The notes: generated from the sequence alone by a model not told the origin. Positions 15,750 to 51,351 are shown, numbered from the stretch's first letter. The stretch: 64,000 nt of DNA from Chloroflexota bacterium (GCA_026708035.1 JAPOVQ010000030.1:124001-188000); one strand, 5' to 3'. A program made the numbers and translations.

Positions 15750-16141
15750 GGGGCCCTTTGAGCAGCTAGAGAGTTTCGAGAGGCAGGGGCGGGCGCCCCG
15801 AGATGGCCGCGGGCGCAGAACGGGACTCCCGTTGCCCACTCCGACAGGAAGTGCCTCCCTGGCTGCGCCTACCGGCCCATGTGCTTGAGTCCGCAGCCTC
15901 GGGAAGCCAGCCTATCCTGGGTGCATAAGTACCGTCAATTGATAGATGTGATACGACCGGCTGTATCCGACTAGTCTGAGTACGGTCGGAGTGGTCGAAT
16001 TGGTATGACCGTCGCAGGTTGATTAGCACCGTCAGTGACAGACCTCAAGACCTTGACGCCTGTCACCTCGCGGACCTAGGGCGACACTCTGAGTCCGCCC
16101 GGCCTTGGCGCCGACCCCGTCGATTCGTGGCTGGGACCGCT
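15750..16141. other. Intergenic region upstream of the giant secreted protein gene
   Basis: No convincing gene is present. The stretch 15910-16020 is A/T-richer. On the minus strand TTGACG (15938-15933) could be a -35 box for the giant gene, but the spaced TAGGCT (15914-15909) is a poor -10. The arms CGACCG and CGGTCG, about 25 bases apart near 15954-15988, could form a weak stem. Evidence is insufficient to name a site. Confidence 0.3.
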
Positions 16142-26970: not shown

Positions 26971-29900
26971 CTAGGGCAGTCTCAGCGAGTCTTGTATTTC
27001 ATCGCTCGCCATCTCGAACAGCCGCGCCAGGGCGTTGGCCAGGTGCATCTGACGGGGCGTGCGGCAGCGCACGGCCAGCAGGCCCGGACTGGCCACGACC
27101 ACTGCGAGGCACTTGGCCCGGCTGGTGGCGACGTTGAGGCGGTTGAGGCTGTAGAGAAACTCCATGCCGCGCGGGGCCTCCTCCGCTGAGCTCGTCGCCA
27201 TCGAGTAAATGGCGATCGGCGCTTCCTGGCCCTGGAACTTATCGACCGTGCCGATGCGCAACGTGCGGAGCTCGGGGCGGGACTCGAGCGCGCGGATCTG
27301 CCGGTTGTAGGGCGTGATGATGAGCACGTCTTCTTCAGTCAGCGTGTGAGTCGCTCCCTCGGCATCGGTCCAGGCGGGGCGCGACCGGAGCAACCGGTCG
27401 ACGCTTTCGGCAATGGCCGCCGCCTCTTCCTCCGAGTCGCTGACGCGGCGCTCATGCTCCACCTCCACGAAGCGCAGCCCCGTGCCGCGGAACGGCGGCG
27501 AACCGGCCAGGTCCAGGTTCTCGCGACCGTCGTGCGAGCGCAGGCTGTCCTCGTAGAAGACCTCCGAGGTGAAGTCGCAGATGCTGGGATGCAGGCGCCA
27601 GGTGCCGTCGAGAAACAGCCCGAATTGCTCGGGCATGACCCGGGCGCCATCGAGTACGTGGGCCAGCACCGACCGCTCCGCGCCCGGTGGGTGCACGCCC
27701 TGCAGCGGCTGATCCAGCTGCTGTGGATCGCCCAGCAGCACCAGGCTGTCGGCGCAACGCGCCGAGGCCAAGGCGTCGGCCAGCGACATTTGTCCGGCCT
27801 CATCGATGCAGAGCACGTCGACCAGGCCCTCGGCTTCCGCGCGCGCCCAGAGCCAGGAGGTCCCGCCGACAACGTCAAGCGATCCCGTGGCGAGCGCTCT
27901 GCACGCGGCCCCGGTGTTCGCGAGGGGCTGCGCATCGGCGAATTCAGGCTCGGATGACCGAAATCGGGTCCGCTGGCCGATCCTGACAGGGACGCCGCGC
28001 TCGGCCGCCACCCGCGCCGTTTTCTCCAGCAACTCGCCGATGACCTTGTGGCTGTTGGCCGTCACGCCCACGCGTTTCCCGGCTGCCACCAGGTCCACGA
28101 TCATCTCGGCGCCAACCGTGCTCTTGCCGGATCCTGGCGGCCCCTGGATCGCCAGGTAGCTCTCGTCCAGCGTCAGGACCAGCCGCCGGGCCGCGTCCTG
28201 GGCGTCTTCGCCGTCACCCGCCAGCGGCGCTCCCTCAGCCTGTCCAAGCCGTGGTGGACGCCGTAGCAACAAGTCGCGCGCCGCCCGATAAGGCGCGGGA
28301 GCGTCGATGCCGAGATCGATCACCCAGGCTGCCAGATTCCACAAGCTCGGCGGTTTTGGCCCTGGATCGACATATTCGTAGGGGATCAGCGATGTCATTA
28401 CGGGCGTCGCGCGGCTCGACGCCACCCTTAGTTCAATCACGCGGGCATGATCGTCCACGGCGACCACTTCCCCGACCGGCACCCCGTGCTGATCGTGCGG
28501 ACGGTCGCCGACCTCAAACTTGTGGTCCTGCGGCGGGAAGCGAAAGCGGTAGATCGTAGACCGCGACCGCGGCCGGGGATCGGCCCGGCTGCCCGCGTAG
28601 CTGAGCTGGCCCAGCGCATCGGACTCGTCCACGCGTTCTTCGTCGGTGACTACGTCCCGCAGGTGGAAATAGCGCCACCAGAACGCCTTGTCCTCGCGCC
28701 GGTGCCAGTCGAGCAGTTGCGCCAGCAGCCACCGCCCGCGTTGGGCCGGATCTTCGAGCGTCCTGCCGTCCGTCAGGTCCACGGGCAAGTCCGCAGTGAG
28801 CTCGGCCACGAGTTCCTGCACCGCCTGTTGCACGTCCGAGTCCTCGGTCTCCTCCACCGGCATGTCCATGGGACGCGGCGGGGCCTCGGCGCCAACCTCG
28901 TTCACCAGCGCGGCGCGCTGCCCTTCCAGCCACTCGCGCAGGTGGTAGGTGGACAGGCAGTCGTCACGGTTATAGGCCCTGATCTGCTCCAGCAGCCCGT
29001 CCCGATCAGTCTCTTCGCCGGGCTCGAGCCAGTGCTCGAACTCCACGATGCTTTCGCCCGCGTCGCGCAGGTCGACTTCCCGTTTGAACCCGTAGAGCGG
29101 CTCCAGACGCTTGATGGAGTAGCTCTCGACGGACGCCCGGATGCCCTGCCGCACCACGCGATAGAGGTCGACGAACACCTTCCCCCGCAGGAGCTGGTCC
29201 ACGTGCGCCTCGCGGGTGGCGTAGCGCCCCGCCAGCCGCTTCATGGCGCCGGTTTCATAGGGTGCGTAGTGATAGACGTGCATGCCGGGGTGATCGGCCC
29301 ATCGGTCCATGATGAGGTCAACGCAATCCTCGAACGCCTGCCGTTCGGCCGCCGGCGTCACCGTGCCGTCCGCAATCGACCAGAACGCGTGGAACGTTGG
29401 ATCGCCCGCGGCGTCGGGCCATCCCGGCTCGATGACGCCGAAGAGGTAGTCGACACCGTCGATCTCCTCGGAGCCGAAGAAGGGATCGCCCTCCAGGTCC
29501 AGGAACAGGTCCCCCGGCGACGGCTCCGGCAGCGCCCAGAGACCGCGGTCCGGCACCAGCGTGCCGTCGCGGTCGCGTTCGGGCGGGATGCGTTCGGAGA
29601 TGACGCGCCCGTCGCCGCGAACTTGAATGGCCGCCTGGGCCTGCGCCCGTTCCAGCGACTCCGGGCTAACGCCGTCCAGCCGGTCCGGCAGCGGCGGCGA
29701 GGGGTTGGCCAGCCCGCGTCGAGTGGTGACGTCGATGGCGTGAAGCGCGCGCCGCTGGCGGGAGGTCAGGTTGGCCACCAGCGCCAGGTCGTCCTCCTGA
29801 CGCCATTGGTCACGGCATGTCTGGCTCCAGCGGCAGAAGTCGCAATGACCGACAGGCTCGGGCTTCGAGACGACCGGAACCGCCGGTTCAAGCTCGTCCA

Positions 29901-30516
29901 GCATCGCTTCGAACTCGCGGGCGACCAGGCGGCCGTAGGCCGCGAAGTCGGCCACCCGCAGGCTTTCTGTTCGCCGCGCAACGCCGCCCAGCGCCAGGTG
30001 CATCCGCTCCGGCTGCCGCCCCTGCATCGCGCCCAGCAGGTTGGAGTACATACCGATCTGGAGCACGGCCGGAGCCGTTGGATGGCGCGCCAGCTTCGTG
30101 TCCCAGACTTCGTAGCTCCACGACCCGAGGTCGCTCGGCGTTTCCACGCGCCGCAAGAAGTCGGCATACCCCAGTCGCCGGTCGCCGAGCAGCACGGCCT
30201 GGTAGATCACGTCGACGCCGTCACGCATCGCTCGCAGCGTGGCGTTGTGCTGAGGTCCAACGGCCGCGGAACCCGAAACGGTATCGGGCGGTCGGATTTC
30301 CTCGATCCTGAGACTCTGGGCCCGCAGCCCTTCGAGGAAACGCTCCTCGTACTCGCGGCCCCGCCGGGCCATGCGGTCGAGCACCGGGTCGTCCTGAAAC
30401 GGGCGTTTGAGATGGCGCAGCGCCGCCGCCCGCTCTAGGTTCGCCAGGTGCCGGCACTCCAGAAACGCCACCAGATCGGTGGCCGAGTAGACCAGGCGGT
30501 CGTCAATCAGTTGCAT
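26971..30516 (-). CDS. TM0106-type RecB-like nuclease fused to a DNA2/UPF1-like helicase
   Basis: About 1181 residues from the ATG at 30516. The N-terminus (SATDLVAFLECRHLANLERAA) is a RecB-family nuclease start, with a Cys cluster near residue 220 (HCDFCRWSQTC) that could hold an Fe-S cluster. A second region (LFLDLEGDPFFG near 340, YHYAPYETGAMKRL, YNRDDCLSTYHLREWL near 520) looks like an RNase H-like exonuclease. The C-terminal half is a superfamily 1 helicase: Walker A IQGPPGSGKST near 790, DEAGQMS near 905, and GTVDKFQGQEAPI and LNVATSRAK in the last part. It probably processes DNA ends or foreign nucleic acid. The role is inferred. Confidence 0.85.
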   Translation of the reverse strand: MQLIDDRLVYSATDLVAFLECRHLANLERAAALRHLKRPFQDDPVLDRMARRGREYEERFLEGLRAQSLRIEEIRPPDTVSGSAAVGPQHNATLRAMRDGVDVIYQAVLLGDRRLGYADFLRRVETPSDLGSWSYEVWDTKLARHPTAPAVLQIGMYSNLLGAMQGRQPERMHLALGGVARRTESLRVADFAAYGRLVAREFEAMLDELEPAVPVVSKPEPVGHCDFCRWSQTCRDQWRQEDDLALVANLTSRQRRALHAIDVTTRRGLANPSPPLPDRLDGVSPESLERAQAQAAIQVRGDGRVISERIPPERDRDGTLVPDRGLWALPEPSPGDLFLDLEGDPFFGSEEIDGVDYLFGVIEPGWPDAAGDPTFHAFWSIADGTVTPAAERQAFEDCVDLIMDRWADHPGMHVYHYAPYETGAMKRLAGRYATREAHVDQLLRGKVFVDLYRVVRQGIRASVESYSIKRLEPLYGFKREVDLRDAGESIVEFEHWLEPGEETDRDGLLEQIRAYNRDDCLSTYHLREWLEGQRAALVNEVGAEAPPRPMDMPVEETEDSDVQQAVQELVAELTADLPVDLTDGRTLEDPAQRGRWLLAQLLDWHRREDKAFWWRYFHLRDVVTDEERVDESDALGQLSYAGSRADPRPRSRSTIYRFRFPPQDHKFEVGDRPHDQHGVPVGEVVAVDDHARVIELRVASSRATPVMTSLIPYEYVDPGPKPPSLWNLAAWVIDLGIDAPAPYRAARDLLLRRPPRLGQAEGAPLAGDGEDAQDAARRLVLTLDESYLAIQGPPGSGKSTVGAEMIVDLVAAGKRVGVTANSHKVIGELLEKTARVAAERGVPVRIGQRTRFRSSEPEFADAQPLANTGAACRALATGSLDVVGGTSWLWARAEAEGLVDVLCIDEAGQMSLADALASARCADSLVLLGDPQQLDQPLQGVHPPGAERSVLAHVLDGARVMPEQFGLFLDGTWRLHPSICDFTSEVFYEDSLRSHDGRENLDLAGSPPFRGTGLRFVEVEHERRVSDSEEEAAAIAESVDRLLRSRPAWTDAEGATHTLTEEDVLIITPYNRQIRALESRPELRTLRIGTVDKFQGQEAPIAIYSMATSSAEEAPRGMEFLYSLNRLNVATSRAKCLAVVVASPGLLAVRCRTPRQMHLANALARLFEMASDEIQDSLRLP

Positions 30517-30767
30517 CGCGGATTCACCAGCCCGTCCCGTGGCCGCCGGCTGGGCGACGGCCACACGTGCGATCAGCGCGAGCGCCCCGTCAACATACTT
30601 CGCCAGACGCAAGCGGCGAAACCCTCATCTCAACCGGTGAAGAGGGCGCGCGTGGGGCTTTGCACAGTGGCTGAACACGCATTGGGCTCGAGCGGCCGGT
30701 GGCGCTTGCAGCGTAGTCGGTCCGTCATCGATAGTTCTCGGGCCTAGCTGATCGTGAAGGCCCATTC

Positions 30768-31988
30768 ATGCCAGCCATGCTCGCGTGGCTCGATCATTCC
30801 GAGGCTGAACAGCGAAGAGCCCGCGAGATCATCAAGTTTTTCATGCAGCCCGAGAGTCGCGACGAGCTGGGCATCGGCGGGATTCGCGATGCGCTTAGCA
30901 ACACGCTGTTTCCCGGGACCTCGATGCTGCTCACGCGCGCCCGATACCTCCTATTCATTCCCTGGCTGTATCGCGAGGGCGCGCGTCGCGGACACAGCGG
31001 CACGAAGCTCACCCAGTGGGTCGAGTGGAATGAACGTCAGCTCATCGGCGCGCTGCGCAACGGCGGCGATCACGAGGGCTTGATCGGTCGCTACTTTGGC
31101 CCAGCTGTCCGAGACCTCCCCTCCGGCATCTATTGGAACACCCTGCGACGCTTCGGGATATTGCGCCGCGAAGTGACGCCGGGCCAGGTCGTGGGCCTGC
31201 CGCAGCACACACGCCTAGCGGACGACGCCACCGAGTTTCTCGGGCACTCCAACGCCCTCTGGGCGCCCACGCTGCCCCAGCCTCCGGCTCGATTCTTCAA
31301 CTTCGAGCGATGCGACTTCGCCCTCACCCGCGACGAGGCGACCTGGCTCGCCGAGCAGATCGTCAATGCCGTGCCCGAGACCCTGCTCGAATTCCTGGTC
31401 GCCCGTCGGAGCCGCATTTCGGACAGCAGCAGGTACGCCTGGGAGGATCCGGACGCTGATGCGGTGAGCGGTCGCGTCCGCGACGCACTTGACGAAGCGC
31501 GCCGCTTCGCCCTGTCCATGCACGGGGCCGCGCTGCTCTACAACGTGCTCCTCGCCGAGCGCGCCGAGAATCTCGGGCTCTCCAAGTTCGATGGTCGTCG
31601 GGAGGAGTTTGTCGCCGAGCTTGACGCGTGGCGTGCCGAGCACGACGACAGCGACATCGGCGACTGGGATCTGAACGGGCTGTGGGCGCTGGTTGCAGCG
31701 AGAGGCAATCCCGCCGCGGCGCTCACGCGGTCATTCGTGTCCGACTGGGTTGGCCTGGCGCGCGGCACGCGCGGCGCGGGGCTCGCGGACGATGGCAACG
31801 CGCGGGCGTTGATTTGGAAACGGGAACAGCAGCACAAGCGCGGTCAGGCGCGGCTCAGCAATGACCGGCTCATGCGCCAGTGGGGCGGCGCCTCTGGGTC
31901 CTGGCGTCTGACCTTCCGCTGGCGAGTCGTGGCGCGACTCCTCAATGACATGGCCGACGGGCGGGAGAGAAGTGGTGCTGGCGCCTGA
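30768..31988 (+). CDS. DUF6361 family protein, first gene of a three-gene operon
   Basis: A 406-residue protein. The N-terminus matches the DUF6361 pattern as I know it: WLDHSEAEQRRAREIIKFF, DELGIGGIRDALSNTLFPGTS and RARYLLFIPWLYRE. No catalytic motif is evident; the protein is rich in Arg and Trp and looks soluble. Its stop lies inside the start of the next gene (17-base overlap if GTG 31972 is used), so the products are likely made together. DUF6361 genes commonly sit next to PLD-like nucleases and helicases; the function is unknown. Confidence 0.85.
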   Translation: MPAMLAWLDHSEAEQRRAREIIKFFMQPESRDELGIGGIRDALSNTLFPGTSMLLTRARYLLFIPWLYREGARRGHSGTKLTQWVEWNERQLIGALRNGGDHEGLIGRYFGPAVRDLPSGIYWNTLRRFGILRREVTPGQVVGLPQHTRLADDATEFLGHSNALWAPTLPQPPARFFNFERCDFALTRDEATWLAEQIVNAVPETLLEFLVARRSRISDSSRYAWEDPDADAVSGRVRDALDEARRFALSMHGAALLYNVLLAERAENLGLSKFDGRREEFVAELDAWRAEHDDSDIGDWDLNGLWALVAARGNPAAALTRSFVSDWVGLARGTRGAGLADDGNARALIWKREQQHKRGQARLSNDRLMRQWGGASGSWRLTFRWRVVARLLNDMADGRERSGAGA

Positions 31989-33777
31989 TAGCCGCGAACT
32001 CTTGCTCGACGCCCTGCGACCGCCCCCGCGGCACTCCCTGGATCACGCGGTCGCGACAACGTTCACTCTCGATCTCGAAGTTGCCCTCATGGTCCCGCTC
32101 GCGTTCGCGGGCTTTCAATTCGACGAGCAGTCGGATCCCGTCGAGATCATGCAGGCGCTGCGCGCGATGAGCGGCCGCATGGACATCTTCTGCCAGGCTG
32201 GCGCCATCCACGCCGGGAAGTGGCCGTCCGACCTGGTGGCTCTGCTCGAGAGCAGCATCCACGCGGCGGCGCCCCCTCGGCGAGGCCACATCTTTCATCC
32301 GAAGACCTGGGTGCTCCGATTCCGCGGTCCGACCCAGGAGCTGTCGTACCGGCTCCTGGTGCTCTCCCGCAACCTCACGACGAGTCGCAATTGGGACACC
32401 ATCCTCCGGCTTGACGGGCAGCCGCGGCAGCGAACCAGCGCCAACAGCGAATCCCTTGCGCGGTTCGTTCGCGCGCTGCCCGAGCTGGCCATCTTGCCGA
32501 TTTTGCCGGACCGACGCGAGTTGCTCGATGCTTTCGCCGACGAATTGGTGCGGGTTGAATGGGAGTTGCCGTCGGGCGTGCGCGAGGCCCACTTCCACCC
32601 CATCGGACTTCGGAACGCGCCCCCGTTTCCGGTTGAGGAGCACTTCAGCGGCTATCGAAGACTCGCGATCTCGCCGTTCCTCGGCGCCGGTGCGCTACGG
32701 CGGATCTTGCGGCCCAGGGCCGGACAGACGTCCATTCTCGTCTCGTGCGGCGAGGAGCTCAATGCCCTCCCCTCGGATGCGCTCGAACACGTGGATGTCT
32801 ACGAGATCGATCCGACGGCGAGTCTTTCCGGGGATGATGTCGAGGACGACGGGTTCCAGACCTTGTCGACCAACCTGCACGCCAAGCTCTTCGTGGTGGA
32901 GCGCGCCCGGCTGGCGCATCTCTTCGTCGGCTCCGCCAATGCGACCCACGCCGGCCTCAGCGACAACGTCGAGTTCCTCTGTGAACTCGTCGGATCGGTT
33001 GCGAAGTTCGGGGTCAATGCGATTGTGGGTGACGACGCGCCGTTTCGCGCCATGCTGATGCCCTACGTGGCCTCCGCCGCGGCGGAAGGCGACGAAGCCG
33101 GCGAGGCCGAACGGGGGCTCACGGATCTGCTGTTTGGCATCGCATCCCGCGTTGGCTTTCGCACCACCGTCACGAAAGAGGACGACGGATGGGTTGCCCG
33201 GATTACCGCCAATGGCTTGCTGCCGCCGATACCCGAGGACTCCAGGCTCACCATCGCTCCCCACAACCGCGACGACGAGGCTTTTCCAATCGCTCCCGCC
33301 GAGCCGGTTGACGTCGAACTGCCGCCCCGCGAGCTCGCGGATATCACCGCGTTTCTTCGGCTCACGGCTAGCCGGACGGTCGAGGGCAAGCCGCTGCAAT
33401 GCTCGGCCGTGGTCTGTTCGCGGCTCCACGGTGCGCCGGACGAGCGCTTCCAGACCATCCTGGCCCGGCAGATCGACACGCCGGAGAAGTTCATGCGGCT
33501 ACTCGCCCTGCTCATCGGCTTCGCTGCGGACGGTGGCGTTCCCATCGCCGCGACGGGCGATGGACAGGGGAGTTGGTCGGCCGGCGCCGCACAGGGCGTC
33601 CTGGAATTGCTCGCGCGCGCCCTGTCCGAGAGGCCCGATTCCATCGATCACCTGGAGGAGATTGTCGAGCACCTCCGCCGATCACAATCCGTCCCGTCCG
33701 TCTTGCCTCGAGGCTGGGACGACGTCTGGCTGCCGGCCCTGAAGGCGCGGCGCGCGATGCGCGCAGCGGACCCATGA
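31972..33777 (+). CDS. Phospholipase D-like nuclease domain protein (operon gene 2)
   Basis: About 601 residues. GTG at 31972 has GGGAGA ahead; an ATG at 31945 is in the same frame. Two HKD-like motifs are visible: HPKTWVLRF followed by LSRNLTTSRNWD near residues 110-145, and HAKLFVVE followed by GSANATHAGLSDN near 302-325. In the PLD superfamily such paired motifs form one active site cutting phosphodiester bonds, so this may be a nuclease or lipase. The ATGA overlap at 33774-33777 couples it to the helicase gene. No signal peptide, so it acts in the cytoplasm. Confidence 0.8.
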   Translation: MVLAPDSRELLLDALRPPPRHSLDHAVATTFTLDLEVALMVPLAFAGFQFDEQSDPVEIMQALRAMSGRMDIFCQAGAIHAGKWPSDLVALLESSIHAAAPPRRGHIFHPKTWVLRFRGPTQELSYRLLVLSRNLTTSRNWDTILRLDGQPRQRTSANSESLARFVRALPELAILPILPDRRELLDAFADELVRVEWELPSGVREAHFHPIGLRNAPPFPVEEHFSGYRRLAISPFLGAGALRRILRPRAGQTSILVSCGEELNALPSDALEHVDVYEIDPTASLSGDDVEDDGFQTLSTNLHAKLFVVERARLAHLFVGSANATHAGLSDNVEFLCELVGSVAKFGVNAIVGDDAPFRAMLMPYVASAAAEGDEAGEAERGLTDLLFGIASRVGFRTTVTKEDDGWVARITANGLLPPIPEDSRLTIAPHNRDDEAFPIAPAEPVDVELPPRELADITAFLRLTASRTVEGKPLQCSAVVCSRLHGAPDERFQTILARQIDTPEKFMRLLALLIGFAADGGVPIAATGDGQGSWSAGAAQGVLELLARALSERPDSIDHLEEIVEHLRRSQSVPSVLPRGWDDVWLPALKARRAMRAADP

Positions 33778-36700
33778 CGCTCAAGGCCCGTAGTGGCCCG
33801 GCCGGTACGCTGAGCGACTTCCAGCGGGCCACCGCCGAGCATGCGTTCCGGCGGCTCTATCTCGATCAGGACTCGTCGCGACGATTTCTCGTGGCCGACG
33901 AGACGGGGCTGGGCAAGACGCATGTCGCGCGGGAAGTCATCGCCCTGACCCTCGATCACCTTCAGCAGGTCGACGGCGTGCGTCGCATCGACATCGTCTA
34001 CGTGTGCTCCAACGCAGACATCGCCGCTCAGAACATCCGCAAGCTCAACGTGACCGCGTCCGACTCGGAGACCACGACCTTCGCCACGCGGCTGAGTCTG
34101 CTGATCACGCAGCCGGACGTGCTGAAACCGACGACGGGCGGCGAAGGAAAACCGACCACGTTCGTGGCCTTCACACCGGCCACGTCGTTTCAGTTTGGCT
34201 GGCAGATGGGAACGGCCGCGGAGCGCGCCGTGCTCTATGTGCTCCTTCGCAGCCACCTGGGTTTGCGGCGGGCGCGGGCTACGGCGGCGCAGCGGATCTT
34301 CCAAGGATTCGTGGCCAGCCGGCGTCGATTCGTCAAGTCGTACGTCGCGTACGCCCGGGCCAAGCGCTTCGAATCCAGCATCCGCCGGGCGTTCCTGGAG
34401 GAGTTCGACCGGAGCTGCGAGCGGGAGTCGCTCCTCGCGCTGGTCGATGAAGTCGTGGGACGGCGGGCGCTGACCGCTGACCAGCACAAGGCCGCTCGCT
34501 GGATCGTCGGCAGCTTGCGCCGGATGCTCGCGCGAGCCGCGGTGCATGCGCTGGAGCCGGATCTCGTGATCCTGGACGAGTTTCAGCGCTTTCGGGACCT
34601 GCTCGACGTGAAAACCGGCAGCGAAGCGGCCGAATTGGCCAATGACTTGTTCACCCAATCCGACGCGCGTGTGCTGTTGCTCTCGGCAACGCCGTATAAG
34701 CCATTCACCTATGCCGAGGAGACTGCGGAGGGCGGCGGGCACTACGAAGATTTTCTGAAGACACTCCAATTCCTCGCTGCCTGGGACGGGCCGGTGGATC
34801 ACCTTCGCGCCGATCTCGACGCGCTGCGCCAAGCGGCGCTCTCAGGCGAGCCGACGGCGGTGATCCGCGATCGCGTGCAAGTCCAGCTCCGGAGGTGGAT
34901 CGCTCGCACCGAGCGGCCCACGGGCGCCCGCCAGATCACCACGTTGGCGCCGACTCGGGGTCGGTTCGGAGTCCAGGCGGACGATTTCTTGGGCTACGTC
35001 ACGTTGCGGCGGATCGCCGACGCGGTGAAAGCGCCGCTGAGCGTCGAGTACTGGAAGTCGGCCCCCTACTTTCTCAACTTCCTGACCGGCTATCGCGTCG
35101 GAGAGCACGTCCGCGACGCGATGAAAGTTCCGGATCAACGGGCCGGATTGCTGCCGGTGCTTCGCGGCGCGCAGCGGATCGCACGACCCAGCGTTCAGCG
35201 CTTCCAGCCGGTCGAGTGGGCAAATGCTCGAATGCGAGCGCTAGCCGAGGAGACGCTCAGTCCAGGCTGGTGGCAGTTGCTCTGGATGCCGCCCTCCCTG
35301 CCCTATCACCGACTCGGCGGTCCGTACGCGTCGATCGATTCGACCGCGATCACCAAGAAGCTCATTTTCTCGAGCTGGGTCGCCGCTCCTTCGGCCATCG
35401 CCTCCCTCCTGAGCTACGAGGTCCAGCGGCGGATCTTCACGAGGGCCAGGGGATCCGAGATCGAGAACACGCCCGCGGCCCGAGCGGCGATTTCGAGACG
35501 GCTCGACTATCGGATGTATGAGGGCCGGCCCGCCTCGATGTCGGCGCTGGCGTTGTTCTGGCCGCAACCGGCGTTGGCGTCCCGCACCGACCCGCTGGAC
35601 GCTGCGCGTGACCACGCCGAGACGCCGAGCGTGGAGCGTCTCCTCGAGTGGGCCCAGGAGCGCGTGCAACCCGTCGTCGGTCCGGCCGGCCACACGGCTT
35701 CCACGGCGAGCGCTGTCTGGCATTGGTTCGCGCCGACTCACGCCGATCGTGACGGCTCGCTTGCCTCCGCGCTCCTCGGCGCCCACCAGAGCACCTTGAC
35801 TGAGGCACTGGCGGGGGACACTCCGGAGCACCGCGCGCTGGACGCGCATGTGGAGCAAGCACTCACTGCCCTTGACGGCGAGAATCCGGAGTCGGAACGA
35901 CCAGCCGACCTGCTCACGACCAGCGCGCTTCTCGGTTTAGGAGCACCGGGGAACATCGCATGGCGTGCGCTCAACCGGTTGAAGCGGCCGGACGACAGCG
36001 TGACCGAGTTGGGGCAATGGCGCGCAGCGGCAATCCTCGCGTCCGGGCTGCGGAGCGTGTTCGCCCGGCCCGTTTCGATATTGCTGCTCGACAGCCTGTA
36101 CGCGGGCTCCGGCAGCATGCGCGACGACGACGGCATCTATTGGCGCCGGGTGGCTCGCTATTGCATCGACGGGGGTCTCCAAGCGGTCCTCGATGAGTAC
36201 ATCCACCACCTCGCGGGGGAAGCCGGCGTCGCCGCGACCACGGACGAGGGGCTGATCGCGCTCGCCGCAACGGCTCGGCGCGCAATCGCCGTTCGAGAGT
36301 CGGTCTACCGCGCGACCGACATCGACAACTTCGACGGCGAGGGCATTGCGTTCCCGAGCCGGTGTGCGATGCGGTTTGGCAGCGCCCGACAGAGTCAAGA
36401 TGAAGCGAGGCTCCCCGAGGTAAGGGCGGCGTTCAACTCGCCGTTCTGGCCATTTGTTCTCGCGACGACCTCCGTCGGCCAGGAGGGAATCGATTTCCAT
36501 TGGTGGTGTCATTCGGTCGTCCACTGGGACCTGCCTGGAAACCCCGTCGATTTCGAGCAGCGTGAGGGTCGGGTGGACCGCTACAAAGGACATGCCATCC
36601 GCAAGAATGTCGCGGCCGCACACCGATCGGCAGCGCTGGCTCCCGGAGTCAGGGACCCCTGGACCGCAGTCTTCGAAACTGCCTCTGCGGAGAGCGACCA

Positions 36701-36965
36701 CGATCTCGGCGGCCTGTCCCCTTGCTGGATATTTCCAGGAAATGCCCAACTCCACCGACGAATCATGGCCCTTGGCCTAAGTCGCGACGAGGATCGATGG
36801 GCACGGCTGCAGGAGTCGCTGGCGCTCTATCGCCTGGCGTTCGGTCAGCCGAGGCAAGAAGACATGCTGGCCGCCCTGGAGCGTCGCGGCATCGACGGGA
36901 ATCCAGACCGGATGGCGGACCTCAGGATCGACCTGCGTCCGCCGGCTCCGCGCGCAACACATTAG
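33774..36965 (+). CDS. DEAD/SNF2-like superfamily 2 helicase (operon gene 3)
   Basis: About 1063 residues from the ATG at 33774, which overlaps the previous stop as ATGA. The motifs in order are: Walker A VADETGLGKTHVA near 40-52, an unusual motif II ILDEFQRF near 266 (DEFQ in place of DEAH), LLLSATPYKPF near 303, then a long middle insertion, and SVGQEGIDFHWW near 900 and QREGRVDRYKG near 925. The last matches motifs V and VI of SNF2/DEAD helicases. It should be an ATP-driven DNA translocase or helicase. With DUF6361 and the PLD protein it forms a co-translated trio, which I read as a defence-type cassette. Confidence 0.85.
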   Translation: MTLKARSGPAGTLSDFQRATAEHAFRRLYLDQDSSRRFLVADETGLGKTHVAREVIALTLDHLQQVDGVRRIDIVYVCSNADIAAQNIRKLNVTASDSETTTFATRLSLLITQPDVLKPTTGGEGKPTTFVAFTPATSFQFGWQMGTAAERAVLYVLLRSHLGLRRARATAAQRIFQGFVASRRRFVKSYVAYARAKRFESSIRRAFLEEFDRSCERESLLALVDEVVGRRALTADQHKAARWIVGSLRRMLARAAVHALEPDLVILDEFQRFRDLLDVKTGSEAAELANDLFTQSDARVLLLSATPYKPFTYAEETAEGGGHYEDFLKTLQFLAAWDGPVDHLRADLDALRQAALSGEPTAVIRDRVQVQLRRWIARTERPTGARQITTLAPTRGRFGVQADDFLGYVTLRRIADAVKAPLSVEYWKSAPYFLNFLTGYRVGEHVRDAMKVPDQRAGLLPVLRGAQRIARPSVQRFQPVEWANARMRALAEETLSPGWWQLLWMPPSLPYHRLGGPYASIDSTAITKKLIFSSWVAAPSAIASLLSYEVQRRIFTRARGSEIENTPAARAAISRRLDYRMYEGRPASMSALALFWPQPALASRTDPLDAARDHAETPSVERLLEWAQERVQPVVGPAGHTASTASAVWHWFAPTHADRDGSLASALLGAHQSTLTEALAGDTPEHRALDAHVEQALTALDGENPESERPADLLTTSALLGLGAPGNIAWRALNRLKRPDDSVTELGQWRAAAILASGLRSVFARPVSILLLDSLYAGSGSMRDDDGIYWRRVARYCIDGGLQAVLDEYIHHLAGEAGVAATTDEGLIALAATARRAIAVRESVYRATDIDNFDGEGIAFPSRCAMRFGSARQSQDEARLPEVRAAFNSPFWPFVLATTSVGQEGIDFHWWCHSVVHWDLPGNPVDFEQREGRVDRYKGHAIRKNVAAAHRSAALAPGVRDPWTAVFETASAESDHDLGGLSPCWIFPGNAQLHRRIMALGLSRDEDRWARLQESLALYRLAFGQPRQEDMLAALERRGIDGNPDRMADLRIDLRPPAPRATH

Positions 36966-37091
36966 AGCCAATTGGCAACCGCACTGCAGCGGTCGTCCAT
37001 CGAGCCGCTGGGAGTGTTGACGCTGGCTCCGCGACGAGTCCTTCAATCGGGAGTCTCGGGAGATGATGTCGGTGGCCTCCAACGTCGAGTC

Positions 37092-37889
37092 TCAGGCGAG
37101 GTCAATCACGATGCGGCAGTGGTCGCTTGGGCCCCAATCGTCGGGGCTGTTGAGGGCGCGGGCGGAGACGCGGTCGGCGATGTTTTCGGTGGCGAAGACG
37201 TAGTCGAGCTGTCCCCACGCCTCCGCGGGTGACTTGCCGATTGGTTTGAAGGTCACCACATCGCCGCGGTAGCCGCGCCGTCCTTCGGGCATGAGGTGGC
37301 GAAAGCCCAGGGCTCGCATCCGGTCGAATGCCGTCTGAAAGTGAAGCGCTTCGCGTTCATTCCAAATCTCCGTCGGATGGCCGCTCCAACCTCGGAAAAT
37401 TGACAGGTCGCCGGCGGCAATGACGCGGCTGCGACGGCCGACCAAACGCGCCAAGTCCGAGATCAGGCGATGCACCGAGCCGATCGCCTCCCGGCGGCTC
37501 GGCGAGTCTGACTCACGTGTGAAATTGTCACCGCCGGCAGCCATTGAAACGACGATGACCGACTCGTCACCGTCGGCCGGGGTCACCACGGCGGCGCCGA
37601 GCGTGCCCCACTCGCTGGTGTAGAAGTCGTGGCTGTAGGGACCGCCGATTTGCCGGGTCGCGATGAAGCTGGCGGTGACTCGGTCGGAGAGCCGCGCGAC
37701 CACTGATGGAAACCCGAGCCAGGCGTCTTGGCGCTCGGGCCAGAGCCTGTAGTCGATGTCGATGCAGGTGCGGAGGTGTTCGGGAACGCGCGAGGCTTCC
37801 TGCAAGAGCGCGATGTCGACATCGTCCATTTCGACCAGCGCATCCCACGGCTTGCGCATGTGGGCCATGTTCCAGCAGACAATCTTCAT
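37092..37889 (-). CDS. Endonuclease/exonuclease/phosphatase (EEP) family protein
   Basis: A 265-residue protein. The fold markers are KIVCWNMAH at the N-terminus, LLQEAS carrying the metal-binding Glu, AGDLSIFRG in the middle, LDYVFAT and the C-terminal WGPSDHCRIVIDL with the catalytic Asp-His pair. These fit the exonuclease III / DNase I-like EEP superfamily of Mg-dependent phosphoesterases. Substrate unknown (DNA, RNA or lipid phosphate). It is convergent with the helicase gene, about 125 bases away. Confidence 0.85.
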   Translation of the reverse strand: MKIVCWNMAHMRKPWDALVEMDDVDIALLQEASRVPEHLRTCIDIDYRLWPERQDAWLGFPSVVARLSDRVTASFIATRQIGGPYSHDFYTSEWGTLGAAVVTPADGDESVIVVSMAAGGDNFTRESDSPSRREAIGSVHRLISDLARLVGRRSRVIAAGDLSIFRGWSGHPTEIWNEREALHFQTAFDRMRALGFRHLMPEGRRGYRGDVVTFKPIGKSPAEAWGQLDYVFATENIADRVSARALNSPDDWGPSDHCRIVIDLA

Positions 37890-38128: not shown

Positions 38129-40126
38129 CTAGGTGCTTGGAATGAGCTGTCCCGTTACGCGTATATCGTAGAAGTAGATATTCTGGACCTCGCTGGAGCC
38201 GGTACATCCCAGACTTAGGGATACATCGTCATCATACGGAAGACCTGCTTCGAGATGCACCACCTCTCCATTGATGTACAGTGCAACGGATCCTCTGTCG
38301 TAGACAAATCTCACGTGGAATCTGTCTTCTCTTTCTAGAATCGGATGTACTTCACGTCTTATTGACTGCCACTCGGCATCGTAGCCAAATCCATAACGTG
38401 TCCACCTGAGATTTGCATATATACCAGTTCGCAAACTAGTATATTCTGTAAAGCTTATTACATCATGCGGCTCATATGGCCGCGCGGAAGTATTGCCGAG
38501 TTCTATGAGAAATCCAGACAATGCGGCAGGATTCTTCCATATTGTCGCCGTGAGCTCGATTGGCCCACCCTCGACCCAAAACGCCATCGCACCGCCAGCT
38601 CGCCCTGAAGCGACTATGTCCCTCGGACAGGCCGCACCCTCACGCTCGATCAGGGTGATTCGGTCGAACAGCGGCCGCGCCGGGCGCGAAGCCGCCGCGC
38701 CACTGGCAATGTCATCCAGCCAGGCGTCCACCAGCGCCTGAGCCGCTTCGGCGGTGAGAGCGGAGTCGGCCTGCGAACGTTCAGGCGATGTGCTGCCGGC
38801 AATGCCCACCACGCGTCCGGTTGTGGTGGCGACCGGGCTGCCACTCTTGCCGGCGTTGATCGTCGGAGTGAAGGTCAGCTGCTGGCCGGCCTGCACGGTC
38901 AATGCCCATATCGACGTCGCCGTCGGCTCCGCTTGACATTCGACACCTCGGCCCGTCTCGGGTTTCGTGGCGTCAAATCCGGTGGCCACGAGCTCAGTCC
39001 CATGCGCCAGGCCCGCTGACTCGCCCAACTGCACCGGAATATGACCGTCGCCGTCAACCTTGATCAGCGCAAGGTCGTGCCCCTGGTGGCCAGCGACGAT
39101 CTGGGCATTGGCCGTGTAGCCGCGCGGGCTTGCGACCGACATCGTGGCCGCGTCCACCGCAAGGCGCCACGGGATCAGGGCATAACCGCTCTCGGTCACG
39201 AAGAATCCCGTCCCGCACGCTTGGTCGGTCCTGACGCGCAGCAGGGCTAGTTCCAGGAACTTCGCCACGTCTTCGGCGGTGTCGCCGTGAGGTCCACGGC
39301 GGCTTTCCAGCCCGAGGTCAAGTTGGTCGCCGACCGCCAGCGGCGCTTCCGGGCCAAAGGCCAGGTATTGCTGCCAGGCGCGGCGCGGATAGCGGCTGTC
39401 GCGCAAGGTATCGCCCAGCAATCGCAGCTTGACCGGCGACGCGGCCGATTCGGGGTGATATTCGAGCACGGCGGCCTGGAAGTACTGGCGAATGCGGCTG
39501 TCGGGCGGGCGGCCGGGGATGTGCAGGTCGGCCTCCGGATGATCGTCCGCGCGCGCATCGGTCTTGGGAAAGCCGAACGAGGCCACGCCGCCCAGCCGGT
39601 GGAAGAAGTCGGCAAAGCCGATGTCCTCGCCTTCCACCGACTGGTTCGAGACCTTGTGGCCCCAGGGGCCGAGCAGCTCACCGGGGTTCGGGTTGGTCAG
39701 GTGCAGCTCGACGCCCTGGTCGATGGAGCCGCCGAGACCGCCGCCCAGATAGTCCCAGGCGAGCCGTCGCTGGAAGGTGGGCGCGCCACCGGCCGGCGGC
39801 GGCTGCCAGTCAACGACGCCGCGCTGGTAGTACTGGGTGAGGGTGCCCGGTCGCTCTTCCACGATGGCGGAGGTTGGGTAGCCCCAGCGTTCGATGCCGC
39901 CGGTCTGGGTGTAGTTCGCCAGGAAGTCGGCGCGAAATGCCGTGCCGTCTGCGAATGTGCCGGCCACGTCCACCACGTTGTGTTGCAGCGGCTCGAAGAA
40001 TTGGACGCCCGAAACTTCCGCGGTCGTGAAGCCAGACTCGGCGCCGCGGCTGGGCGACGGCCCGCCAACTGCCCACAGCGTCAGCGCGAGCAGCGGCGCC
40101 GTGATGAGAACTCGCTTCCACGACAT
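38129..40126 (-). CDS. Secreted trypsin-like protein with GYP/QYF modules and a C-terminal LamG-like domain; catalytic His appears lost
   Basis: About 665 residues from the ATG at 40126, giving a clean signal peptide (VLITAPLLALTLWAV). Residues about 30-275 hold one GYP/QYF double module (RWGYPTSAI, LTQYYQRGVVDW, FGFPKTDA, IRQYFQAAVLEYHP). Residues about 290-490 resemble a trypsin-like domain: GTGFFVTESGYALIPWR replaces the usual NxH, so the catalytic His is Arg, while the Asp (GHDLALIKV) and Ser (AGKSGSPVA) remain. Residues about 520-665 look like a concanavalin/LamG lectin-like domain, encoded by noticeably A/T-richer DNA. It is probably a secreted binding protein rather than an active protease. 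Confidence 0.75.
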   Translation of the reverse strand: MSWKRVLITAPLLALTLWAVGGPSPSRGAESGFTTAEVSGVQFFEPLQHNVVDVAGTFADGTAFRADFLANYTQTGGIERWGYPTSAIVEERPGTLTQYYQRGVVDWQPPPAGGAPTFQRRLAWDYLGGGLGGSIDQGVELHLTNPNPGELLGPWGHKVSNQSVEGEDIGFADFFHRLGGVASFGFPKTDARADDHPEADLHIPGRPPDSRIRQYFQAAVLEYHPESAASPVKLRLLGDTLRDSRYPRRAWQQYLAFGPEAPLAVGDQLDLGLESRRGPHGDTAEDVAKFLELALLRVRTDQACGTGFFVTESGYALIPWRLAVDAATMSVASPRGYTANAQIVAGHQGHDLALIKVDGDGHIPVQLGESAGLAHGTELVATGFDATKPETGRGVECQAEPTATSIWALTVQAGQQLTFTPTINAGKSGSPVATTTGRVVGIAGSTSPERSQADSALTAEAAQALVDAWLDDIASGAAASRPARPLFDRITLIEREGAACPRDIVASGRAGGAMAFWVEGGPIELTATIWKNPAALSGFLIELGNTSARPYEPHDVISFTEYTSLRTGIYANLRWTRYGFGYDAEWQSIRREVHPILEREDRFHVRFVYDRGSVALYINGEVVHLEAGLPYDDDVSLSLGCTGSSEVQNIYFYDIRVTGQLIPST

Positions 40127-40508
40127 TGGTGCGAGCGTCCTCAAGTCGCGGCCAGTGAATTGAGCGATCACGCCGTTCGCAGACTCCCTCGGGCCGTGAT
40201 CCCGTCGCTTCCAGGACGCCTGGAGCGCACCGCCGCAACCCTCCGCCTCCGTGTCATTGCAACCCAAACTATCAAGCCGCGACGGCGACCAAACTTATCA
40301 AGCGGCTCCGGTACCTGCCTACCGGTGCGCATGTGCCCCTGACGCTCGGCGAGGAGGGCGAATTCTAGCGGGATACGGCGAGCGCCGGCGCGCACGACGG
40401 CGCAAGAGCCCTCGGCTTTGTCAGGGTCCTCACCAGGCGACCGGGAACAGCCGGCATGGCTGCCGTGTTCTCGCCGGGTTCGCGATTTGGCCGGATGAGC
40501 AGGTCCGA

Positions 40509-41997: not shown

Positions 41998-43278
41998 TCA
42001 GCCATCCCCGCAAAACGGCAGACCGAGTTGGTCGAGGTCGTTGGTTGGAACTTCTTCCAAGGCATTGGGAACGCATCCCGTGAGTTGGTTCGTGCCGCCG
42101 AGCCGCAACTCAAACAGGTTGTCGAGATTGCCCAGCTCGACAGGGATCGTCCCGCTCAGCTGGTTATCGTGGAGCAACAGCCTTGCCAGCTTGGAAAGAC
42201 TGCCCAGTTCGGCCGGGATTGCCCCGACCAATTGGTTCCCGCTGAGTCCCAGCACATCCAGATTGGTGAGGCGTCCGAGCGCGGGCGGGATCTCTCCGCT
42301 CAGTTGGTTCCCCCTGAGAGCAAGCCCTTGCAGTTTGGCGAGACCGCCCAGCTCGGGCGGAATGCTCCCACTGAGCTGGTTGTCGTGGAGCCGTAGGTGC
42401 CGCAGGTTGGCGAGGTTGCCCAGCTCGGACGGAATTGGCCCACTCAACTGGTTTTCATTGAGCCACAGGTCTGTGAGATGCGTCAGGCGGCCCAGCTCTC
42501 GCGGGATCGGCCCGCGCAATTCGTTCAACTGGAGATACAGCTCCGCCAGGTTGTCGAGTTCGCCCAGCTCGGGCGGGATGGTCCCCCTGAGCTGGTTCCT
42601 ATGCAGCTCCAGCAGTTCCACGCTGGCCAGGCGGCTCAACTCCGCCGGGATCTCTCCACGCAACTGGTTGTTTCCGAGCACCAGCCGCGTGACGCGACCG
42701 TCGGCGTCCGTTGTGACCCCGTGCCAGTCGCCGAGCGGCGCCTCGCTCAGCCAGTTGGTGCTGTTCAGCCAATTCGGTCCGTCGGTTGCGTGGTAGATGG
42801 CGACTAGGACGTCCCGGTCACTGGTGGGGGCGGATGTGGGCGTGGCCGTTCGTGTTGCAGTCGGGTCAGGTATCGGCCTGGGCGTGACTGTCGGTGTGGG
42901 CGTGGGAGTCGGCGTGGGTGCTGGCGTCCGCGTTGGTGAGGGCGTGACCGTTGGATTCGGTGTGGGGGTTAGTGTGGGCGAGACTGTCGGCGCCGCTATT
43001 GGATCGGACGTGGGCGAGGGTGCTGTGGGCGTTGCGGTCGGCGCGACCCGCGCGAGTATGGGTGTTGGCTGGGGCGTCGTGGCCGCCGCGGGATTTGGCG
43101 TGAGCGTTCGGGTCGGCACCGCGTTCGAGTCGGGCGTCGGGGTGAGCGAGGGTGACTCAGGCGCAGCTGTCGTCGGCGTCCGATCAACCGCCTCCGGGAC
43201 TGCAGCCGGGGCGTCGCACGTGGCCGCCATGAGGGAAACGGAGAGCAGGAGCGCCAGCCCGACAACAGCTAGGCGCAT
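41998..43278 (-). CDS. Leucine-rich-repeat lipoprotein with Thr/Pro stalk
   Basis: About 426 residues from the ATG at 43278. The signal segment (MRLAVVGLALLLSVSLMAATC) ends in a lipobox-like MAATC. Then come a long Pro/Thr stalk with PTPTPT runs, an LRR cap (DRDVLVAIYHATDGPNWLNS and WLSEAPLGDWHGV) and about ten plant-type repeats of the form LxxLxNQLxGxIPxELGxL. The stalk would hold the LRRs away from the membrane. The LRRs closely resemble those of the giant protein at 6267-15749, so these are paralogues. Ligand unknown. Confidence 0.85.
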   Translation of the reverse strand: MRLAVVGLALLLSVSLMAATCDAPAAVPEAVDRTPTTAAPESPSLTPTPDSNAVPTRTLTPNPAAATTPQPTPILARVAPTATPTAPSPTSDPIAAPTVSPTLTPTPNPTVTPSPTRTPAPTPTPTPTPTVTPRPIPDPTATRTATPTSAPTSDRDVLVAIYHATDGPNWLNSTNWLSEAPLGDWHGVTTDADGRVTRLVLGNNQLRGEIPAELSRLASVELLELHRNQLRGTIPPELGELDNLAELYLQLNELRGPIPRELGRLTHLTDLWLNENQLSGPIPSELGNLANLRHLRLHDNQLSGSIPPELGGLAKLQGLALRGNQLSGEIPPALGRLTNLDVLGLSGNQLVGAIPAELGSLSKLARLLLHDNQLSGTIPVELGNLDNLFELRLGGTNQLTGCVPNALEEVPTNDLDQLGLPFCGDG

Positions 43279-43883
43279 CAGTACGGCCTGCTGCTTCGGC
43301 CGACATTCGGCTCCGTCGCGCCATGGCCGCGGAGATTTCCGACACGTGGTCCCCGACCAGCGTGGGCAATGCCCTCGCACAGGGCCACCGGCGGCGCGTG
43401 TGCCGCGCGCTCGAGTCGGCGACAACGCACCCCCGCTCCCCTCGACCGGTGCCGTCGCGCAGTGCGCCACAGACCAACCGCAAAGGACCAGAGCGTGCAA
43501 GGAAGTTCACCAGGTCGGCAGTCGCCTGTGCGATCACGACCGACGCGGTCGGGGTCACGGCGGCTGGGCCGACCGCGCCCGTGGTGAGCTGTCGAGCCAT
43601 CTCGGCGACCGAATCCACTCGGGCGCGCTGGTGGGCAGCCGAATCGCAGAACGAGGCAGCATGCTCCGACCCACGGGGACACACGCAGCCTGCCACGCCG
43701 CTGGGACAGCACCGTCAGCCCACCAGGATCTTTATGGCAGCAGTTGCGGCGGCACGTCAGGTCTCTGCGGCATTTGAACTATCGGCGGTGCTCCACAGTC
43801 GCCACAACGTGAGCGCCCCGGGCGCCTCGGCGGAGAAAACTGCCGCGCTGGGCTCTTCGGGGAGGGCCGCTCGCCATCCCGCT
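43279..43883. other. Gene-free stretch upstream of the LRR lipoprotein
   Basis: Open frames exist on both strands because the DNA is GC-rich, but none has a recognisable domain, signal or start context. Nothing else is seen. It probably holds the promoter of the LRR gene near its left end. Confidence 0.35.
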
Positions 43884-50202: not shown

Positions 50203-51351
50203 GTGTCCTCTTCCCGAGATGTAGCGACGGGTGGGGCTCATCTCGACGACCTCTGCGGCCACATTTTCGCAGCCCCAAGGACTTCGGCGGGAGTGCGGCC
50301 TTGCGTGCGGCGCCCGGTGTGGGCGCGGTCGTGGTTGTAGTACTGGAGATACTGCGCCAGATCCCGGCGGAGGGCCGTGAAGCGGGGGATCAAGGCACGG
50401 GCGAAGGTGGGGCGGTAGCACTCCGCGAGGATGGTTTGGTGGACGCGCTCCACGCAGCCGTTGCTCTCGGGCCGGCCCGCGCGGATCCGCGTGTGACGCA
50501 CCCCGGCGTGGGCGAGGGCCTGCCGGAAGGTGGCGCTGGTGAACTCGCTGGCGTTGTCGGTGCTGACGCGCTGGAGCGGCCAGCCATGGCGGGCCAAGTC
50601 CGCGGCGACCTGCTGGGCTAAGGCCGCGGTGTGGCGGGCGGCGGGATTGCGCGGGGTGTTGTGGAGGGTGGCCCAGGTGTAGCTCGTGGCGACGTCAATG
50701 GCCGTGTACTGCCAGGTGCGTCCCCGAGAGCCCGTCAACTGGCCGACGTGGAAACAGTCCAGCTGGACCAGCTCGCCCGGCTGGGCGGCCTCGATATGGC
50801 GCACGGGCTCCGGGACGCGCGGGGGTGGCTCGGGCGGGGCCTGGTAGCCCGCGATCAGCCCCAGCCGCTTGGCGCGCGTATTGAGGCCCGCGCGGCGCAG
50901 CACGTTCCAGATGCCGTGCGGGCTGCGGCGGTGCCCACCCCACCGCGGGCGCCGCAACTCGGCCGCTAGCCGGTCGGGGCCCCACCCGGGATGGGCCAAG
51001 GCCACCGCCAGGATGTGCTGTTCCAACCACGGCGGCGTCCGTCACGGCGACTGGGGCGGGCGCCGCTCGCGGGGGCGCAGGGCGTCCAGGCCCCACCGCT
51101 GCACGGGCTTGCGCCAGCGGTAATACGTCGACGGATGCACGCCCATGATGCGGCAGGCGGCGCGCACGTTGCCCAGCTCCTCGGCCAGCGCGAACAGGCG
51201 TAGCCGGAACCGGTGGAGTACGTCATCATGGGTCATGAGCGGTGCCTCGCTTCCATCTCATCGTTTGATCCCGATGAGATAAAGCGTGCACCGCTCTCTG
51301 GCGTCAGCCCAAACCGATGCCAGGTGTCGCGTCTCTTTGGGAAGAGGACAC
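50203..51351 (-). mobile_element. IS481-like insertion sequence
   Basis: The ends are near-perfect inverted repeats, GTGTCCTCTTCCCgaga on the left and its complement at the right (gtgtcctcttccc is identical over 13 bases). About 1.15 kb long. It carries a transposase with an integrase core. No target-site duplication is evident, and the flanking gene does not resume, so an adjacent deletion or rearrangement followed insertion. Confidence 0.8.
50238..51236 (-). pseudogene. IS481-family transposase, frame disrupted
   Basis: The N-terminal HTH part (51236-51042; RAACRIMGVHPSTYYRWRKP) and the rve core (51026-50238) are in different frames. The core keeps D in YTAIDVATSYT, D in RVSTDNASEF and E in GCVERVHQTI, the DDE triad. 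The break is near 51030: the first part ends in PPQSP and a stop, and the expected joining sequence VTDAAVV is in a third frame. IS481 members normally have one frame, so this is probably inactive unless a sequencing indel is involved. Confidence 0.75.

What the first reader, a model, noticed from the sequence alone, without database searches (positions are those of the whole stretch)
30768..36965. Overlapping DUF6361 / PLD-nuclease / helicase operon: candidate undescribed defence cassette
Three genes are coupled: the first two overlap by 17 bases (using GTG 31972) and the next two by ATGA. They encode a DUF6361 protein, a cytoplasmic protein with two HKD-like motifs and a large SF2 helicase with an unusual DEFQ motif II. 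Nuclease-helicase pairs are the core of many antiphage systems (DISARM has a PLD-type DrmC and helicases), but this gene set has no methyltransferase and does not match a named system I recall. A TM0106 nuclease-helicase and an EEP phosphoesterase flank it.
Basis: partly seen in the sequence, partly recalled or inferred. Interest (0 to 1): 0.75.

Follow-up and report, generated by a model that had tools for sequence, protein, structure and literature searches.

The report
Azaca three-gene phage-defence operon
The three coupled genes are an intact copy of Azaca, an already described bacterial anti-phage system (nuclease, helicase and a protein of unknown role), carried here by a Chloroflexota bacterium known only from metagenomes; the locus is a sound observation but not a new system.

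Summary
In detail: three co-directional, overlapping genes (30768-36965) encode a DUF6361 protein, a PLD-type nuclease and a large SF2 helicase. The interpretation "undescribed cassette" does not: PADLOC models identify them over nearly full length as ZacA, ZacB and ZacC (E 7.5e-120, 1.2e-153, 0), the Azaca system of Millman et al. 2022. ZacABC occurs in this order in Chloroflexota, Actinomycetota, Pseudomonadota and a haloarchaeal plasmid; in 400 Chloroflexota genomes the genes co-occur almost perfectly (15 genomes with all three). Several distant copies sit beside other defence genes. The flanking TM0106 and EEP genes are not part of it: a congener has them adjacent, with 68 nt in place of the 6.4-kb cassette. 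New detail: ZacB is a two-lobed PLD fold most like Tdp1, with invariant H-K-N residues in both halves and the H-K-N-E pattern of BfiI/SauUSI in the second; "DEFQ" is invariant in 18/18 ZacC; ZacB probably starts at GTG 31975. Most likely mechanism (inferred): ZacC, an ATP-driven translocase, delivers or activates the ZacB nuclease on phage DNA, with ZacA as adaptor or sensor. A new member of a known system whose mechanism I found described only as unknown.

The parts
30768..31988 (+). zacA: DUF6361 protein, 406 aa, mostly helical, no solved-structure match
   Evidence: PADLOC ZacA E 7.5e-120 residues 1-399; PF19888 E 1.7e-69; AF2 model pLDDT 75.8, no fold match with E<2
31972..33777 (+). zacB: two-lobed PLD-superfamily nuclease, about 600 aa; start GTG 31972 or (better conserved) GTG 31975
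   Evidence: PADLOC ZacB E 1.2e-153 residues 3-594; invariant HPK/RN and HAK/GSxN/NxE motifs in 16 homologues; Tdp1-like fold Z 17.3, 296 aligned residues; start codon comparison
33774..36965 (+). zacC: SF2 (RapA/DrmD/DpdE-like) helicase/translocase, 1063 aa
   Evidence: PADLOC ZacC E=0, 1061 bits, residues 12-1056; DEAD and Helicase_C Pfam over cut-off; motifs I, II (DEFQ), III, VI conserved in 18 homologues
30637..37070 (.). approximate limits of the Azaca cassette relative to the empty site of a congener (G002)
   Evidence: flank homology to L099 ends at 30636 and resumes at 37071, with 68 nt between in L099
32296..32373 (+). ZacB first catalytic half-motif: H109-P-K111 ... S132-R133-N134
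   Evidence: invariant or nearly so in 16 sequences; coordinates computed from residue numbers with residue 1 at 31972
32878..32973 (+). ZacB second catalytic half-motif: H303-A-K305 ... G320-S321-x-N323 ... E334
   Evidence: invariant; residue-by-residue match to BfiI (2c1l) and SauUSI (7clg); coordinates computed from residue numbers
26971..30612 (-). left flank, not part of the system: TM0106-family RecB-like nuclease/helicase, family backbone gene
   Evidence: TIGR03491; present in all 8 relatives tested including Azaca-less G002, G004, G006
37092..37889 (-). right flank, not part of the system: weak EEP (Exo_endo_phos) homologue
   Evidence: directly beside TM0106 without Azaca in G002

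Best explanation
This is an intact Azaca anti-phage operon, zacA-zacB-zacC, a mobile cassette lying between two backbone genes of a Chloroflexota MAG. Shown here: identity, strict co-occurrence, gene coupling, broad phyletic spread, defence-gene neighbours of several distant copies, presence/absence at this site, purifying selection and intact active-site motifs. Inferred mechanism: ZacC is an ATP-dependent DNA translocase (RapA/DrmD-like SF2) and ZacB a metal-independent PLD nuclease carrying both half-sites in one chain; ZacC engages phage DNA, or an end or intermediate of it, and its ATP cycle positions or activates ZacB, which cuts through a covalent histidine intermediate, so phage DNA is degraded. 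ZacA, a helical protein with no recognised catalytic signature, is the likely adaptor or recognition subunit. This is the architecture of SauUSI (PLD plus SF2 ATPase) split over separate polypeptides. Confidence in the identity alone is about 0.97; in the mechanism about 0.55.
For: Nearly full-length PADLOC ZacA/B/C hits. In 400 Chloroflexota genomes: DUF6361 in 17, strong ZacB in 16, ZacC in 17; 15 hold all three and the exceptions are contig-edge or decayed copies. Same ABC order with overlapping or nearly abutting genes in Chloroflexota, Micromonospora, Virgisporangium, Oxalobacteraceae, Cronobacter, Rhizobium, Agrobacterium, Niveispirillum, Phaeobacter and Halomarina. Defence neighbours: PglW in L060, DrmD in L061, Type III methyltransferase in L055, Type I RM genes in L056, multiubiquitin/ThiF genes and UvrD/PD-(D/E)XK pairs in rhizobial plasmids. 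Empty site in G002. Catalytic H-K-N-E alignment to BfiI and SauUSI; Tdp1/PLD3/PLD fold. SauUSI precedent for ATP-driven translocation coupled to PLD cleavage (PMC7913695). dN/dS 0.16-0.31.
Against: No experiment on this locus or, in the papers I could read, on the mechanism of any Azaca; papers list it as unknown. The immediate neighbourhood in this genome is not a defence island by the PADLOC scan of the large window ORFs. ZacA has no detectable fold relative, so its role is guesswork. Tdp1-like folds can also be phosphodiesterases or lipases rather than endonucleases. Protein-protein contacts were not modelled.
Confidence: 0.85

Rival explanations
1. Azaca acts by abortive infection: phage DNA or replication intermediates sensed by ZacC/ZacA unleash ZacB on host and phage DNA alike and the cell dies before phage release, as in Hachiman where a helicase sensor restrains a nuclease effector.
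For: A helicase-sensor plus nuclease-effector precedent exists (Hachiman, abstract, PMC12278908); no methyltransferase or other self-marking gene is in the operon.
Against: Nothing in the sequence decides; SauUSI, the closest PLD+SF2 precedent, is a restriction enzyme rather than a suicide system (PMC7913695).
Confidence: 0.3
2. The genes form a DNA-repair operon together with the neighbouring TM0106 nuclease-helicase and EEP phosphoesterase.
For: ZacB's best fold match is the repair enzyme Tdp1 and nuclease-helicase genes lie next to it.
Against: TM0106 occurs without Azaca in G002, G004 and G006, and EEP sits directly beside TM0106 in G002; elsewhere ZacABC has other neighbours, often defence genes; presence is patchy and often plasmid-borne.
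Confidence: 0.04
3. A DISARM-like or otherwise new defence system.
For: ZacB weakly hits DrmC profiles and ZacC weakly hits DrmD/DpdE.
Against: Those hits cover only a 35-60-residue PLD half-motif or the helicase C-terminal motifs; the same proteins match ZacA/B/C over nearly full length at far better scores. No DrmB or methyltransferase found, and no more than a short DrmA match.
Confidence: 0.01

Closest known systems
Azaca (ZacA-ZacB-ZacC; Millman et al. 2022, PADLOC PDLC03828-03830)
   Same: All three genes, order, strand, nearly full-length profile matches, PLD-like ZacB, helicase ZacC
   Different: Only host lineage and sequence divergence; 38-47% identical to actinobacterial copies and 26-31% to the Oxalobacteraceae copy
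SauUSI (PDB 7clg), ATP-dependent modification-dependent restriction enzyme
   Same: PLD nuclease coupled to an SF2 ATPase; ZacB second half-motif aligns with the SauUSI H119/K121 region (PMC7913695)
   Different: SauUSI is one polypeptide with a single PLD half-site per chain (dimer) and an SRA target domain; Azaca has three proteins, both half-sites in ZacB, and no SRA domain found by Pfam
DISARM (DrmC PLD protein, DrmA/DrmD helicases)
   Same: PLD protein plus SF2 helicase
   Different: DISARM typically has DrmA, DrmB and a methyltransferase, with DrmC dispensable (PMC9142583); DrmB and a methyltransferase are absent here and the DrmA match is a short motif
Tdp1 / PLD3 / PLD4 / bacterial PLD fold
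   Same: Two-lobed PLD fold over ZacB residues 1-369, Z 14-17, H-K-N motifs
   Different: About 12% identity; ZacB has an extra roughly 230-residue C-terminal part not covered by these matches

Membership tests
Azaca | ZacA, ZacB and ZacC all present | tested here: met
   PADLOC E 7.5e-120, 1.2e-153, 0 over nearly full length
Azaca | contiguous same-strand operon in order A-B-C | tested here: met
   overlaps of 14-17 and 4 bases; same order in distant copies
Azaca | PLD-like domain | tested here: met
   motifs, fold; PMC10952713 lists a PLD-like domain for Azaca
Azaca | helicase in the third protein | tested here: met
   ZacC is treated as an SF1/SF2 helicase in PMC12278908
Azaca | anti-phage activity | not testable with these tools
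   needs expression and phage challenge
DISARM | DrmA helicase with DrmB (DUF1998) | tested here: not met
   no DUF1998 or DrmB hit in the three genes or adjacent genes; DrmA match only 33 bits over residues 883-939 of ZacC
DISARM | DNA methyltransferase in the operon | tested here: not met
   none among cassette or adjacent genes
SauUSI-type restriction enzyme | PLD + SF2 ATPase + SRA target domain in one chain | tested here: not met
   separate proteins and no SRA hit
Mokosh | MkoA/MkoC helicase | tested here: not met
   the Azaca proteins have no MkoA or MkoC match among the listed hits; only the flanking TM0106 gene shows partial MkoA/MkoC similarity

The most novel reading that the evidence does not exclude
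Azaca is a split SauUSI-type ATP-dependent DNA-degrading machine in which one ZacB chain carries a complete Tdp1-like active site and ZacA, possibly of a new fold, supplies recognition; showing this would explain a defence system whose mechanism I found described only as unknown.
Probability: 0.35. Interest if true: 0.5.

Novelty: new member of a known kind. Interest (0 to 1): 0.2.

Why it matters
It closes the question raised (a described system, not a new one), adds a lineage in which Azaca is common (12 of 19 sampled genomes of one Chloroflexota family hold all three genes) with a clean empty site in a congener, and gives concrete catalytic residues and a testable nuclease-translocase model for a system listed as mechanistically unknown.

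Tried and rejected
Counting TM0106 and EEP as system components: rejected by the empty-site comparison. DISARM membership via DrmC/DrmD hits: only short motif-level matches. A phage origin: no DUF6361 relative in viral contigs, only distant helicases for ZacC, no PHROG for ZacA or ZacB; a single unverified 'phage' contig from faeces (L108) carries a divergent ABC set. Fold relatives of ZacA: Foldseek best E 2.2; best second-look Z 3.8, too weak for a helical protein. Sequence relatives of ZacA in the PDB: none meaningful. Promoter/terminator scan: nothing beyond shuffles. Composition: the cassette's GC (0.65-0.68) is like its left flank, so it gives no sign of recent transfer. The original Millman 2022 paper is not in the held library, so its experimental data were not read.

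Full report
Observation. The B/C junction is ATGA. The A/B overlap is 17 bases from GTG 31972; comparing 13 loci, the next codon (GTG 31975, overlap 14) is the position at which most homologues carry ATG or GTG, so 31975 is the slightly better start. A Shine-Dalgarno-like GGGAGAG lies just upstream (sequence).

Identity. PADLOC profiles match nearly end to end: ZacA 7.5e-120 (residues 1-399), ZacB 1.2e-153 (3-594), ZacC E=0 (12-1056). These are the components of Azaca, reported by Millman et al. 2022 (the attribution is from PMC10952713, and PMC13321033; that these profile names belong to Azaca is also supported by PMC12278908, which writes 'Azaca (ZacC)'). PMC10482375 and PMC12926258 list its mechanism as unknown. 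Pfam alone gives DUF6361 for ZacA, a sub-threshold PLD for ZacB and DEAD/Helicase_C for ZacC, which is why a reader without defence profiles could take it for undescribed.

Organism. The closest named loci are Chloroflexota MAGs, including SAR202 cluster bin87 and others titled Dehalococcoidia; the isolate names suggest sponge and marine metagenomes, which is my reading of the titles and was not checked. The window lies at C30:124001-188000 of a 3.46-Mb, 36-contig assembly.

Co-occurrence. Among 400 Chloroflexota genomes, DUF6361 is found in 17, strong ZacB in 16 and ZacC in 17. Fifteen genomes have all three. The exceptions are fragments: G012 (B and C on a contig end), G393 (pieces of A and C) and G346 (about 103 residues of A). 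Outside the phylum the same A-B-C operon is found in Micromonospora, Virgisporangium and an Oxalobacteraceae MAG and on plasmids of Cronobacter, Rhizobium, Agrobacterium, Niveispirillum, Phaeobacter and the archaeon Halomarina.

Context. In this genome the cassette is not inside a recognisable defence island (only the larger ORFs were scanned). In other genomes it often has defence neighbours: PglW next to the L060 copy and DrmD next to the L061 copy, a Type III methyltransferase beside L055, Type I RM genes beside L056, a ZorD/DpdE-like helicase beside L074, and multiubiquitin/ThiF and UvrD/PD-(D/E)XK pairs in rhizobial plasmids. No background rate was measured, so this is a set of examples and not an enrichment test.

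Mobility. In four members of the window's genus (G000, G001, G003, G005) Azaca lies between TM0106 and EEP, although in G001 the locus is split over two contig ends. G002 has TM0106 and EEP adjacent, with flank homology to the window stopping at 30636 and resuming at 37071, and 68 nt in place of the 6.4 kb. G004 lacks both Azaca and EEP. In the sister genus the cassette lies in other surroundings and TM0106 is elsewhere. So TM0106 and EEP are not system genes, and the cassette is present or absent as a unit; whether G002 lost it or never had it is not decided.

ZacB. In 16 diverse homologues H109, K111, N134, D142 and H303, K305, N323, E334 are invariant. The second set aligns residue for residue with BfiI (LHAK...SGN...NIE) and SauUSI (FHAK...GSSN...NYE). 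The aspartate of the classical HKD is not conserved, so these are H-K-N(-E) motifs, as the HKN motifs of Tdp1 (PMC12280126 abstract). The AF2 model (pLDDT 76, 10 sequences) matches Tdp1 best (Z 17.3, rmsd 4.1, 296 residues) and PLD/PLD3 closely behind (Z about 15) over residues 1-369. Foldseek itself ranks a PLD-family synthase first (E 6e-5) with the NgoAVII R protein and SauUSI behind. ZacB thus probably holds both half-sites in one chain, unlike BfiI and SauUSI, which form the site by dimerisation (PMC7913695).

ZacC. Motifs I (DE-T/V-GLGK-T/S), II (DEFQ), III (SATP) and VI (QREGRxxR) are invariant or nearly so in 18 sequences. DEFQ is a family hallmark rather than an oddity. PDB relatives by sequence are RapA only.

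ZacA. Predicted mostly helical (pLDDT 76), with no convincing fold relative. Its most conserved block is around residues 32-66 (LGxGxIRDAxxxxxFPGTSxxxTRxRYxxxxPW); no catalytic signature was recognised.

Function of this copy. All motifs are intact, and dN/dS against the copies of G005, G003 and a sister-genus genome is 0.16-0.31 for the three genes, so it is under purifying selection and probably active.

Mechanism (inferred). A PLD nuclease plus an SF2 translocase is the parts list of SauUSI, where target recognition switches on ATP hydrolysis, translocation and DNA shredding (PMC7913695). I propose that Azaca does the same in three parts, with ZacA as adaptor or recognition factor. Direct degradation is favoured over abortive infection only mildly.

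Verdict. Real, well-formed and functional-looking, but a known system: interest low, with modest mechanistic added value.

Noticed in passing
window 6267-15839 (-): A 3190-aa ORF with leucine-rich repeats and about 15 SWM (PF13753) repeats, a giant repetitive protein.
   Followed up: no
window 41998-43500 (-): A second LRR protein with a long proline/threonine-rich stretch before the repeats.
   Followed up: no
window 649-1635 (+): DUF4268 protein near the window edge; not tested for nuclease or defence links.
   Followed up: no
window 50238-51026 (-): Integrase-core (rve) transposase-like ORF.
   Followed up: no
L059; G001:C26:1783-4920; G010:C29:44020-46605; G393:C28: Decayed Azaca copies: L059 keeps only pieces of A, B and C; ZacC of G001 and G010 carries an in-frame TAG; G393 has remnants of A and C. 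Assembly error is not excluded.
   Followed up: partly
L107 9986-11842: On Agrobacterium plasmid pTiL-11 zacB is annotated as two ORFs, although tblastn aligns it as one piece.
   Followed up: no
window 30768-36965 versus L072 (G005): Synonymous divergence of zacABC from G005 (0.26-0.29) is lower than that of the flanking TM0106 gene (0.46), hinting at exchange of the cassette within the genus.
   Followed up: no
L100 7869-12310 (G004); window 38129-40267: The trypsin-like gene next to EEP is present as a tandem pair in G004, which lacks both Azaca and EEP; this spot looks variable in the genus.
   Followed up: no
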